A stretch of 64,000 nucleotides of DNA. Source: Xanthomonas sacchari (GTDB lineage Bacteria; Pseudomonadota; Gammaproteobacteria; Xanthomonadales; Xanthomonadaceae). A model generated the notes under the pieces. The model worked only from the letters and a program-made list of their open reading frames with translations. It was not told where the DNA came from and searched no databases. Of this stretch, positions 38,200-50,216 are shown in pieces. The position numbers and the translations under genes were made by a program. The stretch lies in NCBI RefSeq assembly GCF_024266585.1, contig NZ_CP100647.1, forward strand, positions 1,345,001 to 1,409,000, written 5' to 3'. The number at the start of each line of letters is the position of its first letter. The first letter of the stretch is position 1.

Positions 38200-38263
38200 C
38201 CACCCGCATGCGGCCCACCTACCCCTCGACTGCGGCCGCTCGCCGCACCTCCCTGGCTATGGT
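38200..38263 (+). promoter_or_regulatory. CTACCC-type activator sites plus -10 upstream of TonB receptor
   Basis: CCACCC (38200-38205) and CTACCC (38219-38224) have starts 19 bp apart. After 33 bp comes TATGGT (38258-38263) as the -10. No -35 consensus is present, as expected for an activator-dependent promoter. A further CTACCC lies at 38168-38173. The identical geometry occurs at 41137 and 50153. Confidence 0.65.
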
Positions 38264-38348
38264 TCCTTCGCGCCGCGTTCACGGCGTCGCCGGTCGGGGG
38301 ACAGGTGCGTTTCCACGCGATATCCACGTCATCCAGGGGGTCTTGGGC

Positions 38349-41045
38349 ATGAGCAAGCGATTGAAGACGCATCGTCTGGCGGAGTCGGTGCGCAGGGGGC
38401 TGGGGAACGCCGGGCATCGCCACGGAACCGCCACGCTGGCGCTGTTGCTGGCCGCCACGCAGGCGCTGCCGGCGCTGGCCGAACAAGGGGACGACCAGGC
38501 CACGACGCTGGATGCGATCACGGTCATTTCGACCGGCACGCGCAAGGCCAACATGGCGGTGACCGACAGCCCGGCGCCGATCCAGCTGGTCAGCGCGCAG
38601 ATGCTCAAGCAGTCGGCCGCGCCGGACCTGATCAACGCCATCGCCAACCAGGTGCCGTCCTACAACGCCAACCAGACCGGCAACGACATGGCCAGCCAGA
38701 CGCTCACCGCCAGTCTGCGCAACCTCTCGCCCAACCACACGCTGGTGCTGGTCAACGGCAAGCGCCGCCACATCACCTCCAACGTCAACACCACCACCGG
38801 CGCGGCGTCGGCGGACCTGTCGTTCATCCCGGCCGCGGCCATCGACCACGTGGAAGTGCTGACCGACGGCGCCGCGGCGCTGTACGGCTCGGACGCGATC
38901 GCCGGCGTCATCAACATCATCCTGAAGAAGAACCACGAAGGCGGCGAGGTGGATGCCGGCTACGCCGGCTACAAGGACGGTGGCGGCGGCACCGATTCGT
39001 GGGGCGGCAACATCGGCTTCGGCAGCGACGCGGCGTACTTCAGCCTCAGCGCCGAGGTCGAGAACCGCAAGACCGTGTACCGGCTCGGCTCCTACAGCTA
39101 CGCCGACTGCGTGGCCAACTACGCCGACTGCTCGGCGGTCAATCCGAGCATGGCCGAGTTCCTCGCCGACGACGTGCGCGGCATGACCCTCAACCCGCGC
39201 TTTCCCAACGTCAACGCCTGGCTCAATCCGCCGGAAGTGCACCGCAAAGTGCTGTTCTTCAACTCCGGCGCGGTGCTCAGCGACACGCTCGAGTTCTACG
39301 CGTTCGGCAGCTTCGGCAAGAAGACCGCGCAGTCGGAGGAGAATTACCGGCGTCCCAGCCAGGACGGCGGCTATGTCGATCCGGCGACCGGTGCGGTCAG
39401 CCACAAGTACCCGCTGGGCTTCAATCCGTCCGAGGCCTCCGACGAGGTCGACTACGAGCTCACTGCCGGCCTGAAGGGCGTGCTGGCCGACTGGTCCTGG
39501 GATTTCTCCAGCAGCTACGGCAAGAACAAGATGGACGTGTACACGCTGAACTCGATGAACTTCAGCCTGTGGCAGGAGGACGGCTACTCGCCCGAGGATT
39601 TCTACGACGGCAGCTTCTGGGCCAGCCAGTGGACCACCAACCTCAACGCCACCCACGATTTCGAGGTCGGCCTGTCGCAGCCGCTGACCTTCAACGCCGG
39701 CATCGAATACCGCCGCGACCGCTACGGCATCGATGCGGGCGATCCGACCTCGTACTACGGCGCCGGCGCGTCTTCCTTCCCCGGCTACAACCCGTTGTTC
39801 AACACCGGCTCCTACAGCCGCCACAGCTACGCCGCCTATGCCGACGTGGTGTTCAACCCGACCGAGAAGTGGCTGCTGGACGTGGCCGGACGCTACGAAA
39901 ACTACAGCGACTTCGGCAGCAAGGTGGTCGGCAAGCTGACCACCCGCTTCGACATCAGCGACACGTTCGCGGTGCGCGCCACCGCCAGCACCGGCTTCCG
40001 TGCGCCGACCCTGCAGGAAGGCTACTACTCGGCGGTGCAGGTCGGCCCGACCAGCGCCACCCCGACGCTGCAGCCCAACAGCGCGGCCGCCGCCGCGCTG
40101 GGCTTCGGCAGCCTGAAGCCGGAGACCAGCACCAACTACAGCCTGGGCTTCGTGTTCCGGCCGATGTCCAACTTCGACAGCACGCTCGACTTCTACCGCA
40201 TCACCATCTCCGATCGCATCGGTGTGGGGACCTTCGAATACTCCCGCGCCGGCGAGCCGGGCGACACCAACGGCGACGGCGTCCCCGACGCGACCTACAA
40301 CACCGCGCTGGGCCAGGCCCTGGTCGACTTCGGCTACCTGGGCGGCATCGATCCGTCCGCGCCGGGCGGCTCGCTCGACGCCACCGCGCGCCAGAACATC
40401 TCCGTGGCGATCTTCAACAATTCGCTCAAGACCCGCAGCAGTGGCGTGGACTGGGTGACCAACTACGTCAGCGAGTTCGACTGGGGCTCGATCGACTGGA
40501 TCCTGGCGGCCAACTACAACAAGACCGAGGTGCTCGACGCCAAGCCGGCACCGCAGGTGCTCGGCGGCGCCACCATGTACAGCGCGGCGACGCTGATCAA
40601 CCTGGAGAAGAACGCGCCGCAGTACCGGGTCAACCTCGGCGCCACCTTCAACATCGGCAAGTTCAGCCTGCGCGTGACCGAGGCGATCTACGGGCCGCAG
40701 TACCAGTTGGTCACGCCGTACGACGACTGGAACGGCGAGATCTTCCCGGCCAGCGTGCTGAGCAAGCTCGACGTGGTCGACGTCAACGGCGCGCCGTACT
40801 ACAAACAGGAGATCGGCACGCTGGCGCTGACCAACGTCGAGCTGACCTACCGGCCCACCGATCGGCTCACGGTCAGCATCGGCGCCGACAACGTGTTCAA
40901 CAAGTACCCGGACAAGATCCCGGCGGCGGCCTACAACTACCTCGAGAAGAACTACCTGAGCTACTACAACTCGCCGTACCTGACCGGCAGCCCGATCGGT
41001 TACTTCGGCGCGCGCTACTACGCCAAGCTCACCTACCGCTTCTGA
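38349..41045 (+). CDS. TonB-dependent receptor of the amine-oxidation locus
   Basis: Outer-membrane transporter of 898 residues. A long N-terminal signal region (MSKRLKTHRLAESVRRGLGN, then ATLALLLAATQALPALAEQ) is followed by a TonB-box-like LDAITVISTGTRK. The plug domain has HTLVLVNGKRRHITSNVN and IDHVEVLTDGAAALYGSDAI, and the barrel ends AKLTYRF. AGGGGG precedes the ATG at 38349; the longer frame has no signal character. Its promoter has the same site pattern as the oxidase operon that follows 177 bases downstream. It probably imports the compound that the operon oxidises; the substrate is not known. Confidence 0.92.
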   Translation: MSKRLKTHRLAESVRRGLGNAGHRHGTATLALLLAATQALPALAEQGDDQATTLDAITVISTGTRKANMAVTDSPAPIQLVSAQMLKQSAAPDLINAIANQVPSYNANQTGNDMASQTLTASLRNLSPNHTLVLVNGKRRHITSNVNTTTGAASADLSFIPAAAIDHVEVLTDGAAALYGSDAIAGVINIILKKNHEGGEVDAGYAGYKDGGGGTDSWGGNIGFGSDAAYFSLSAEVENRKTVYRLGSYSYADCVANYADCSAVNPSMAEFLADDVRGMTLNPRFPNVNAWLNPPEVHRKVLFFNSGAVLSDTLEFYAFGSFGKKTAQSEENYRRPSQDGGYVDPATGAVSHKYPLGFNPSEASDEVDYELTAGLKGVLADWSWDFSSSYGKNKMDVYTLNSMNFSLWQEDGYSPEDFYDGSFWASQWTTNLNATHDFEVGLSQPLTFNAGIEYRRDRYGIDAGDPTSYYGAGASSFPGYNPLFNTGSYSRHSYAAYADVVFNPTEKWLLDVAGRYENYSDFGSKVVGKLTTRFDISDTFAVRATASTGFRAPTLQEGYYSAVQVGPTSATPTLQPNSAAAAALGFGSLKPETSTNYSLGFVFRPMSNFDSTLDFYRITISDRIGVGTFEYSRAGEPGDTNGDGVPDATYNTALGQALVDFGYLGGIDPSAPGGSLDATARQNISVAIFNNSLKTRSSGVDWVTNYVSEFDWGSIDWILAANYNKTEVLDAKPAPQVLGGATMYSAATLINLEKNAPQYRVNLGATFNIGKFSLRVTEAIYGPQYQLVTPYDDWNGEIFPASVLSKLDVVDVNGAPYYKQEIGTLALTNVELTYRPTDRLTVSIGADNVFNKYPDKIPAAAYNYLEKNYLSYYNSPYLTGSPIGYFGARYYAKLTYRF

Positions 41046-41060
41046 CCGCCATGGCGCGCA

Positions 41061-48764: not shown

Positions 48765-50057
48765 TCAGCCGGCGGCGACCACCGCGAACGCCTCGCGCGC
48801 CGCGGCCAGGGTGGCGTCCAGCACCGCGTCGTCGTGGGCGCTGGACACGAAACCGGCCTCGTACGCCGAGGGTGCCAGGAACACGCCGCGCGCCAGCATC
48901 GCGTGGAAGAAGCGGTTGAACGCGGCGGTGTCGCAGGCGGTGGCCTGGGCGTAGGTCTCCACCTTCTCGCTGGTGAAGAACAGCCCGAACATCGCCCCGA
49001 CCTGGTTGGTGGTGACCGCCACGCCGGCCGCCGCCGCCGCGGCTTCCAGGCCGGCGCACAACTGCGCGGTGGCCGCGTCCAGGCGTTGGTGGAAGCCCGG
49101 CGCCTGGATCAGCTCCAGCATCGCCAGCCCCGCGGCCATCGCCACCGGATTGCCGCTGAGCGTGCCGGCCTGGTAGATCGGCCCGGACGGGGCCACCTGC
49201 CGCATCAGCTCGGCGCGGCCGCCATAGGCGCCCACCGGCATGCCGCCGCCGATGATCTTGCCGAAGGTGGTCAGGTCCGGGGTCACCCCGTAGTGCGCCT
49301 GCGCGCCGCCCAGGGCGACGCGGAAACCGGTCATCACCTCGTCGAAGATCAGCAGCGCGCCGTACCGCGTGCACAGGTCGCGCAGGTGCTGCAGATAGCC
49401 CGGGCGCGGCGGAATGCAGTTGGCGTTGCCGACCACCGGTTCGATGATGACCGCGGCGATCTCGTGGCCGATCTGCTCGAACAGCGCGGTGGCGCCCTCG
49501 GCGTCGTTGTAGGCCAGGGTGGCGGTGAGTTCGCTCAGGCCTGCCGGCACGCCCGGCGAGGTCGGCACGCCGAGGGTCAACATGCCGCTGCCGGCCTTGA
49601 CCAGGAACGAGTCGCCGTGGCCGTGGTAGCAGCCTTCGAACTTGACGATGCGGTTGCGCCCGGTGGCGCCGCGGGCCAATCGCACCGCCGACAGCGTGGC
49701 CTCGGTTCCGGAGTTGACCATGCGCACCATCTCGCACGACGGCACCAGCCGGGTGATGGTCTGCGCCATCGTCACCTCGGCCGGGCACGGCGCGCCGAAC
49801 GACAGGCCGTCGCCGATCGCGCGCTGCACCGCCTCGCGCACCGCCGGGTGGTTGTGCCCGGCGATCATCGGCCCCCACGAGCCGACGTAGTCGATGTAGC
49901 GGTTGCCGTCGACGTCGTACAGGTACGGACCATCGGCGCGCTGCACGAAGAACGGTTCGCCGCCGACCGACTTGAAGGCGCGCACCGGCGAATTGACGCC
50001 GCCGGGAATCAGCGACTGCGCTTGGCTGAACAGGGTGTGCGAGCGGGAATGGGTCAT
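48765..50057 (-). CDS. hemL: glutamate-1-semialdehyde 2,1-aminomutase
   Basis: PLP enzyme of the C5 haem pathway, converting glutamate-1-semialdehyde to 5-aminolevulinate. The 430-residue product has [75 protein letters not shown] and the Schiff-base Lys in [35 protein letters not shown] follows. The ATG at 50057 has AAGGA in its leader; the frame to 50147 is Arg-rich and unlikely. It is divergent from the Oar-like receptor gene, whose activator sites lie in the shared 307-base gap. Confidence 0.96.
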
Positions 50058-50152
50058 GAGCGGGAATCCTTGGCGATGCTGGCCGGGCCGACGGCCGGGC
50101 GCGGAGCGAGGCCGTCTATTGTCGCGGCTGCCGCCGACATGCGCCATGTCGC

Positions 50153-50216
50153 CTACCCGGCCAGGGGGTACCTACCCGTCGCGGCCGGCGCCGCGCCGCG
50201 ATCCGCTGCCTAGGAT
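50153..50216 (+). promoter_or_regulatory. CTACCC-type activator sites plus -10 of the Oar-like receptor
   Basis: CTACCC at 50153-50158 and 50172-50177 (starts 19 bp apart), then 33 bp to TAGGAT (50211-50216). This geometry is identical to 38200 and 41137. The sites lie in the hemL/receptor divergent gap; the orientation matches the receptor. The leader to the ATG is about 140 bases. Confidence 0.68.

What the first reader, a model, noticed from the sequence alone, without database searches (positions are those of the whole stretch)
38200..50216. Three promoters share an exact two-site code: hexamer pair 19 bp apart, then 33 bp to the -10
Seen: C(T/C)ACCC pairs at 38200/38219, 41137/41156 and 50153/50172 all have starts exactly 19 bp apart. 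From the end of the second site there are exactly 33 bp to TATGGT, TATGGT and TAGGAT. The genes driven are TonB receptor, oxidase operon and Oar-like receptor. No -35 consensus is present. TACCC-type heptamers are typical of LuxR/NarL-type helix-turn-helix proteins, and a MalT-like regulator is encoded inside the locus. The match of spacing in three unlinked gaps is hard to explain by chance.
Basis: partly seen in the sequence, partly recalled or inferred. Interest (0 to 1): 0.85.

Follow-up and report, generated by a model that had tools for sequence, protein, structure and literature searches.

The report
MalT-like regulator's two-site promoter code
In a group of Xanthomonas-like bacteria, genes that probably take up and oxidise amino-compounds share one rigid DNA switch, a word written twice 19 letters apart with a promoter box 33 letters further on; the switch travels through evolution with one neighbouring regulator gene, whose protein is probably what reads it.

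Summary
CYACCC pairs 19 bp apart, then 33 bp to a TAnnnT box, stand at 38200, 41137 and 50153. At up to one mismatch the refined word pair CCTACCCR-N11-CCTACCC occurs in the 4.89 Mb genome only there, plus an overlapping third repeat at 41118. In 26 loci, 49 of 53 CYACCC pairs with 19-bp spacing have TAnnnT at exactly 33 bp. The code tracks the MalT-like (LAL) LuxR-type regulator inside the locus: a promoter profile hits 19 of 20 family genomes with that regulator (15 supplied training sites) and 1 of 178 others. Two genomes with the oxidase but no regulator found have no site. In other genera the code precedes unlinked homologues of the same genes and new ones (permease-EutBC, penicillin amidase). 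In another family a weak match precedes hydantoinase-like genes beside a 50%-identical regulator. Best reading: the LAL protein binds both heptamers and activates -35-less promoters of an amino-compound uptake and oxidation regulon. Binding, activation, substrate and ligand are inferred or unknown. The kind is known (MalT-type activation from direct repeats). Five paper searches aimed at this operator or regulon listed nothing describing it.

The parts
38199..38224 (+). operator 1: CCCACCCG ... CCTACCC, repeats 19 bp apart, before the TonB receptor gene
38258..38263 (+). -10-like TATGGT, 33 bp after operator 1
38349..41045 (+). TonB-dependent receptor, 898 aa
   Evidence: PF00593 1.2e-32, PF07715 7.7e-19
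41136..41161 (+). operator 2: CCTACCCG ... CCTACCC, 19 bp apart, before the oxidase operon; an extra CCACCC lies a further 19 bp upstream (41118)
41195..41200 (+). -10-like TATGGT, 33 bp after operator 2
41222..42829 (+). flavin amine oxidase, L-amino-acid-oxidase-like, twin-arginine-like N-terminus (read by eye)
   Evidence: PF01593 1.8e-59; 2jae L-amino acid oxidase 1.2e-96; sequence
42826..43251 (+). c-type cytochrome
   Evidence: PF13442 1.6e-13
43295..43804 (+). RidA-like protein with signal-like N-terminus (by eye)
   Evidence: PF01042 1.9e-16
43837..45024 (+). histidinol-phosphate-aminotransferase-like enzyme, twin-arginine-like N-terminus (by eye)
   Evidence: PF00155 1.9e-43; 3ly1 4e-46
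45164..45634 (+). azurin (start codon uncertain; open frame 44819-45634)
   Evidence: TIGR02695 3.6e-55; PF00127 3.1e-18
45764..48541 (-). LAL (MalT-like, STAND-type) LuxR-family regulator, 925 aa; the likely reader of the operators
   Evidence: GerE 1.4e-19, TPR_MalT 6.8e-9; MalT 8bob_C 9.1e-44 over residues 29-443
50152..50177 (+). operator 3: CCTACCCG ... CCTACCC, 19 bp apart, before the Oar-like receptor gene
50211..50216 (+). -10-like TAGGAT, 33 bp after operator 3
50365..53526 (+). Oar-like TonB receptor, 1053 aa
   Evidence: PF25183 2.5e-30, PF07715 9e-9

Best explanation
The repeated element is the operator of the LAL (MalT-like, STAND-type LuxR) activator encoded at 45764-48541. GerE domains of an activated, oligomerised LAL protein bind the two CCTACCC(G) heptamers in direct repeat. 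If the TATGGT-like box is the -10, the heptamers lie near -71 to -64 and -52 to -45. From there the protein recruits RNA polymerase to a promoter without a -35. The rigid 19 and 33 bp fix the geometry of that contact. In this genome the regulon is three transcription units: a TonB receptor; an operon of L-amino-acid-oxidase-like enzyme, cytochrome c, RidA, aminotransferase-like enzyme and azurin; an Oar-like TonB receptor. Together they would import an amino-compound and oxidise it, probably in the periplasm. Shown: the element, its rigidity, its association with the regulator and with these genes. Inferred: binding, activation, oligomerisation, substrate class, and an inducing ligand sensed by the TPR region.
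For: Rigid code: 49 of 53 CYACCC 19-bp pairs have TAnnnT at 33 bp, in 26 loci; 11 of 11 sites at the loci of six genomes fetched later. Follows the regulator: profile R1 in 19 of 20 regulator-bearing and 1 of 178 other family genomes, 4 of the 5 regulator-bearing genomes that gave no training site; exact CCTACCCR-N11-CCTACCC 40 copies in 17 of 20 regulator-bearing genomes, none in 20 others that I chose. Not carried by the oxidase: G041 and G042 have the oxidase orthologue, no regulator match and no operator. In trans before homologous genes. Weak full-length match beside the regulator of another family. Recognition helix SENTVKFHLKN in 17 of 18 regulators aligned from these loci, the 18th cut short after SENTVKF. 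No conserved -35. MalT precedent.
Against: No binding, expression or transcript-start data. Association is partly shared descent, since operator and regulator are neighbours in most of these genomes. Not all sites keep the -10 distance: among the 53 pairs four do not (41118; 34 bp in L069; 32 bp in L077; none in L071 Oar), and 3 of 11 trans sites (L085, L086, L092) show no -10-like hexamer at 28-38 bp even with a looser definition. G192 has a truncated regulator gene but keeps good operators. Regulators of G474 and G412 (36-37% identical) have the same TVKFHLK helix core, yet no 19-bp pair was found in their genomes or near the regulator. Other regulators were not screened for co-occurrence. 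G041 is a 76%-complete assembly, so a missing regulator there is uncertain; G042 is rated 100%.
Confidence: 0.85

Rival explanations
1. The element is an operator, but of another regulator encoded elsewhere (for example a NarL/FixJ-type response regulator or an AraC-type protein like HrpX); the LAL gene is a hitchhiking neighbour.
For: Binding was not tested; NarL-type proteins share the GerE fold; the layout resembles the HrpX PIP box (TTCGB-N15-16-TTCGB-N30-32-YANNNT; PMC3285194 passages). Two genomes with truncated LAL genes keep at least one good operator each. No other regulator was screened.
Against: Operator presence follows the LAL gene in 198 genomes; it is missing where only the oxidase remains; in G275, where no other window protein matches in the 20 kb fetched, the best-placed match is beside the LAL gene. 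Word and spacing differ from the PIP box.
Confidence: 0.11
2. The LAL protein binds the repeats but mainly represses, or the element has a role other than activation.
For: Direction of control cannot be read from sequence; in ten g17 Oar-type promoters an inverted GGGTAGGG lies in the spacer near the -35 position (read).
Against: The heptamers lie upstream of the polymerase core site, no -35 is conserved, and MalT is an activator.
Confidence: 0.06
3. Coincidence, or recent duplication of one promoter, in a 70% G+C sequence.
For: Single CYACCC words are common here and one more spaced pair exists at 41118.
Against: 0 of 400 simulated windows; the three copies are 92% alike in the heptamers and 78% in the -10 but only 24% in N11 and 48% in the spacer; the code recurs in six genera of the family.
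Confidence: 0.01

Closest known systems
MalT and the maltose regulon (LAL/STAND activators of the LuxR superfamily)
   Same: Protein family (NOD-like N-terminus, TPR sensor, C-terminal GerE). MalT sites are two decanucleotides in direct repeat (PMC6099782 passages); MalT multimerises and binds its boxes cooperatively (PMC4381067 passages).
   Different: Other word (CCTACCC), rigid 19-bp repeat distance and 33 bp to the -10; targets are TonB receptors and amino-compound enzymes, not maltose genes. MalT site positions relative to the -10 were not taken from any call.
TpdR, LAL regulator of tetramethylpyrazine degradation in Rhodococcus jostii
   Same: LAL protein proposed to use a direct repeat upstream of a catabolic operon (PMC6099782 passages).
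   Different: 15-nt repeat of other sequence; one operon; different phylum.
HrpX / PIP-box promoters of Xanthomonas
   Same: Two direct repeats of a short word, fixed gap, then a -10-like box about 30 bp on: TTCGB-N15-16-TTCGB-N30-32-YANNNT (PMC3285194 passages).
   Different: Different word and spacing (CCTACCC, 19 bp, 33 bp); HrpX is AraC-type; different kinds of target genes.
NarL/FixJ-type operators
   Same: GerE-fold protein; TACCC core resembles the NarL heptamer (consensus recalled, from no call).
   Different: NarL heptamers form an inverted repeat (PMC6099782 passages); here direct repeat; no receiver domain in the regulator.

Membership tests
LAL / MalT-type regulators | N-terminal nucleotide-binding STAND module | tested here: met
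   8bob_C MalT 9.1e-44 over 29-443; nSTAND_NTPase5 3.9e-7, below its curated cut-off; MalT model NF003420 1.7e-89, 301 bits against a cut-off of 537, so a relative and not MalT itself
LAL / MalT-type regulators | TPR-type sensor region | tested here: met
   TPR_MalT 6.8e-9 (35.9 bits, below its cut-off of 45) over 501-821; TPR_1 4.4e-7, above its cut-off
LAL / MalT-type regulators | C-terminal GerE HTH | tested here: met
   PF00196 1.4e-19, residues 854-905
LAL / MalT-type regulators | binds direct repeats and activates on inducer binding | not testable with these tools
   direct repeats found; binding and activation need experiments
HrpX PIP-box promoters | TTCGB-N15-16-TTCGB with 30-32 bp to YANNNT | tested here: not met
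   word is CCYACCC, repeats start 19 bp apart, gap 33 bp
NarL-type heptamer operators | heptamers as an inverted pair | tested here: not met
   both words on the same strand
sigma-70 promoters with both elements | -35 TTGACA-like hexamer about 17 bp before the -10 | tested here: not met
   consensus there is GGCC-rich without TTG

The most novel reading that the evidence does not exclude
A LAL subfamily with no operator described so far reads a rigid direct-repeat promoter code (19 / 33 bp) as a portable module that is attached to different amino-nitrogen genes in different bacteria (L-amino-acid oxidase, aminotransferase, ethanolamine ammonia-lyase, penicillin amidase, hydantoinase-like enzymes, TonB receptors). 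Its geometry is convergent on the AraC-type PIP box of the same bacteria, and the spacing shifts (17 / 32 bp) where the regulator has diverged.
Probability: 0.5. Interest if true: 0.65.

Novelty: new member of a known kind. Interest (0 to 1): 0.55.

Why it matters
From sequence alone it gives an operator, a spacing rule, target genes and a likely reader for a MalT-like regulator. It also gives natural variants for testing how such an activator sets its distance to polymerase: spacing 17/32 in G018, truncated regulator genes in G092 and G192, an oxidase without a regulator in G042. It groups TonB receptors of unknown cargo with amino-compound enzymes, which narrows what they may carry.

Tried and rejected
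Coincidence: rejected. Promoter duplication: rejected, as only the heptamers and the -10 are much alike. Operator tied to the oxidase itself: rejected by G042 and, less safely because the assembly is 76% complete, G041. PIP box: wrong word, spacing and gap. NarL-type inverted pair: arrangement is direct. Autoregulation: no operator before the regulator gene in the window (the best place there is a weak CCTACGC at 48661, -11.5 bits). Remote regulators in G474, G412 and G292 (32-37% identical): no pair at 19 bp in their genomes at up to one mismatch, and near the regulators only pairs at 44 bp (L112) and 8 bp (L114) and a partial profile match (L112, E 0.043), although G474 and G412 keep the TVKFHLK helix core. 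The search for related loci gave four loci only, one a 28%-identical Chloroflexi protein.

Paper searches: eight were answered. Those aimed at the regulon or the word listed no paper whose title or shown abstract start describes it; only the listings were read, and searches listed 25 of 77 and 10 of 325 matching papers. The library lacks most subscription journals. Of four papers I saw passages only.

Weak points told: the 40 sites and the 44 were selected for the 33-bp gap, whereas searches were not. R1 holds sites from 15 of the 20 regulator-bearing genomes, the window included. Trans sites: 8 of 11 have a -10-like hexamer (TAnnnT, TATA or CAnnnT) at 32-33 bp, 3 have none at 28-38 bp; for L085 and L086 the open frame that matches a TonB receptor begins, by a crude start choice, more than 400 bp after the site. 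One partial profile match in a genome without the regulator (G195, E 5.3e-4) was not followed; weak R1 matches (E 0.037-0.098) also occur in genomes without the regulator. G004, without the regulator, has CTACCC-R-N11-CCTACCC with no TAnnnT at 33; the 17-of-20 against 1-of-178 count tested was a filter applied by eye to the rows. In the six later genomes one search also lists two one-mismatch pairs away from the locus (G447, G445), not followed. G018 is found by R1 only weakly (E 0.018), not at 0.001. My azurin query in the script was wrong (2 aa), so azurin was not followed in relatives. Of nine trans and substitute TonB or other genes only those named were Pfam-tested; the rest are named by tblastn or blastp to window proteins.
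Full report
WHAT WAS CHECKED. The three sites are exactly as described. The window is part of a 4,889,028-base single-contig genome (G000:C1:1345001-1409000). By the regulator protein its nearest named relatives found are Xanthomonas bonasiae (92% identity), Xanthomonas sp. AmX2 (83%) and [Pseudomonas] boreopolis (63%), so it is very probably a Xanthomonas. In the whole genome CTACCC-N13-CTACCC occurs twice, both in this locus, against one for the same pattern read backwards. 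CCTACCCR-N11-CCTACCC with up to one mismatch occurs four times, all here: window 38199, 41117, 41136 and 50152. In 400 Markov-simulated windows the CYACCC pair had a mean of 0.05 and never had TAnnnT at 33.

THE ELEMENT. I fetched the orthologous loci. From 40 sites (37 distinct) chosen to fit CYACCC-N13-CYACCC-N33-TAnnnT, the per-position information shows two CCTACCC(G) words, a nearly free N11, GYCG after the second word, and a box GCTGGC-TATGGT-CGA; the -35 region is without TTGACA. Without selecting for the gap, in 26 loci (window, L063-L081, L115-L120) 41 of 42 CCTACCC direct pairs within 60 bp are 19 bp apart (the other is 17), and 49 of 53 CYACCC 19-bp pairs have TAnnnT at 33; the next best combinations of spacing and gap occur 5 times each, and all other combinations together 36 times. 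The four exceptions are 41118 (the third repeat), 34 bp in L069, 32 bp in L077 and none in the Oar promoter of L071. Six genomes fetched later gave 11 of 11 locus sites at 33 bp; that search also allowed CYAYCC as first word. In the window's three copies the words are 92% alike, the N11 24%, the spacer 48% and the -10 78%: this looks like selection on the code, not copying of the region. A weight matrix trained on 44 sites with the window left out finds just these three places in the window (48.0, 43.3, 38.9 bits; next -8.4).

WHO READS IT. The locus encodes a 925-aa LAL protein (MalT 8bob_C 9.1e-44 over 29-443; TPR_MalT 6.8e-9; GerE 1.4e-19). A search of 198 family genomes found it in 29 at 1e-40: 20 match at 43% identity or more (two of them, G092 and G192, over the C-terminal part only), and 9 have only paralogues of 28-31%. 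The promoter profile R1 (68 columns, 32 sites, sequence only) hits 19 of these 20 genomes at E<=0.001 and 1 of the 178 others, a partial match at 5.3e-4 in G195. R1 contains sites from 15 of the 20; of the 5 that gave none (G058, G017, G118, G175, G018) it finds 4. Exact CCTACCCR-N11-CCTACCC: 40 copies in 17 of 20 regulator-bearing genomes; none in 20 genomes without the regulator that I chose, of which 5 have a one-mismatch copy. A Fisher test on 17 of 20 against 1 of 178, from rows filtered by eye, gives 1e-20, but relatedness makes this number only indicative.

DISSOCIATION. The oxidase has an orthologue in 22 of 198 genomes at 1e-100: the 20 regulator-bearing ones plus G041 and G042. In the latter two no regulator was matched and no operator found; G041 is rated 76% complete, G042 100%. 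Conversely G275, of another family, has a 50%-identical regulator; no other window protein matched in the 20 kb fetched, though a TonB receptor gene of another kind lies beside it. There R1 finds a full-length match (positions 1-64; E 0.041 for the genome) on the opposite strand, about 130 bp before the first matched codon of the regulator: CCTACCC and CCACCC 19 bp apart and TATTTT 33 bp on, before a 106-aa frame without Pfam match and two genes matching hydantoinase/oxoprolinase A and B. The match is weak alone; its position makes it notable. In G018 (regulator 43% identical) a TonB receptor gene upstream of the oxidase has the same words 17 bp apart and TAAGGT at 32.

PROTEIN-DNA CONSISTENCY. 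The recognition helix reads SENTVKFHLKN in 17 of 18 regulators aligned from these loci (the 18th, L078, is cut short after SENTVKF) and SENTVKFHLKS in G275; 8 of 10 loci with ~30% paralogues have ETVKW instead, the other two TVKY and TVKS. Against a simple rule, G474 and G412 (36-37% identical) keep TVKFHLK but show no such operator. In G092 and G192 only the C-terminal part of the regulator gene remains, in three pieces. In G092 the Oar promoter has lost its first word and the gap is 24 bp instead of 33 (read); in G192 it is intact.

THE REGULON. In this genome: a TonB receptor; an L-amino-acid-oxidase-like enzyme (nearest solved structure 2jae), cytochrome c, RidA, a histidinol-phosphate-aminotransferase-like enzyme and azurin; an Oar-like TonB receptor. 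Twin-arginine or signal-like N-termini on oxidase, RidA and aminotransferase suggest periplasmic enzymes (read by eye). In g17 genomes such as G159 the operator stands before an ~800-aa TonB receptor gene of another kind that precedes the oxidase genes, with a second operator before Oar; in G140 it stands directly before the oxidase. In trans: G001, a second oxidase (68%), an aminotransferase-like gene (57%) and TonB receptors; G053, an aminotransferase-like gene (54%), a penicillin amidase and TonB receptors; G043, an amino-acid permease-EutB-EutC operon; G030, TonB receptors. Of these 11 trans sites 8 have a -10-like hexamer (looser definition) at 32-33 bp and 3 have none. The common theme is uptake of amino-compounds and release of their nitrogen; the substrate is not known.

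MECHANISM. If the TATGGT box is the -10, the words lie near -71 to -64 and -52 to -45. With no -35, the simplest reading is activation by an oligomeric LAL protein bound to both repeats, as for MalT, which multimerises on inducer binding and binds MalT boxes cooperatively (PMC4381067, passages) and whose sites are two decanucleotides in direct repeat (PMC6099782, passages). The layout also resembles the PIP box of HrpX (TTCGB-N15-16-TTCGB-N30-32-YANNNT; PMC3285194, passages), an AraC-type system in the same genus, so the geometry looks convergent.

VERDICT. Real, and best explained as the operator of a MalT-like regulator: a new regulon of a known kind. Binding, activation and the ligand remain to be shown.

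Noticed in passing
L072, L074, L075, L078, L081, L116-L120 (Oar-type promoters of g17 genomes): Ten of 14 sequence-alike g17 promoters carry an inverted GGGTAGGG in the 33-bp spacer, near the -35 position; three others have GGGTGGG there, L080 has neither. It could be a third half-site (read).
   Followed up: no
window 41118: A third CCACCC lies 19 bp upstream of operator 2, making three units in register; in the 198 genomes such a third unit was listed only for this genome.
   Followed up: partly
window 43837-45024: A PLP-type aminotransferase-like enzyme with a twin-arginine-like leader, next to an L-amino-acid-oxidase-like enzyme and RidA: possibly PLP chemistry in the periplasm.
   Followed up: no
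L080 (G092) 7954-9227; L081 (G192) 9215-10241: Regulator gene reduced to its C-terminal part, in three pieces, between otherwise conserved neighbours.
   Followed up: partly
L091 (G043 contig C22) 281-4014: An amino-acid permease-EutB-EutC operon carries the operator with TATAAG at 33 bp: ethanolamine use may have been joined to this regulon in [Pseudomonas] boreopolis.
   Followed up: partly
L090 (G053 contig C7): A penicillin-amidase-family gene carries the operator with TAGGCT at 33 bp.
   Followed up: partly
L111 (G275) 4808-10673: A weak but well-placed operator match before hydantoinase/oxoprolinase-like genes, divergent from a 50%-identical regulator in another family.
   Followed up: partly
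window 38168: A further CTACCC 51 bp upstream of 38219; pairs at 51 bp occur 5 times in the 26 loci.
   Followed up: no
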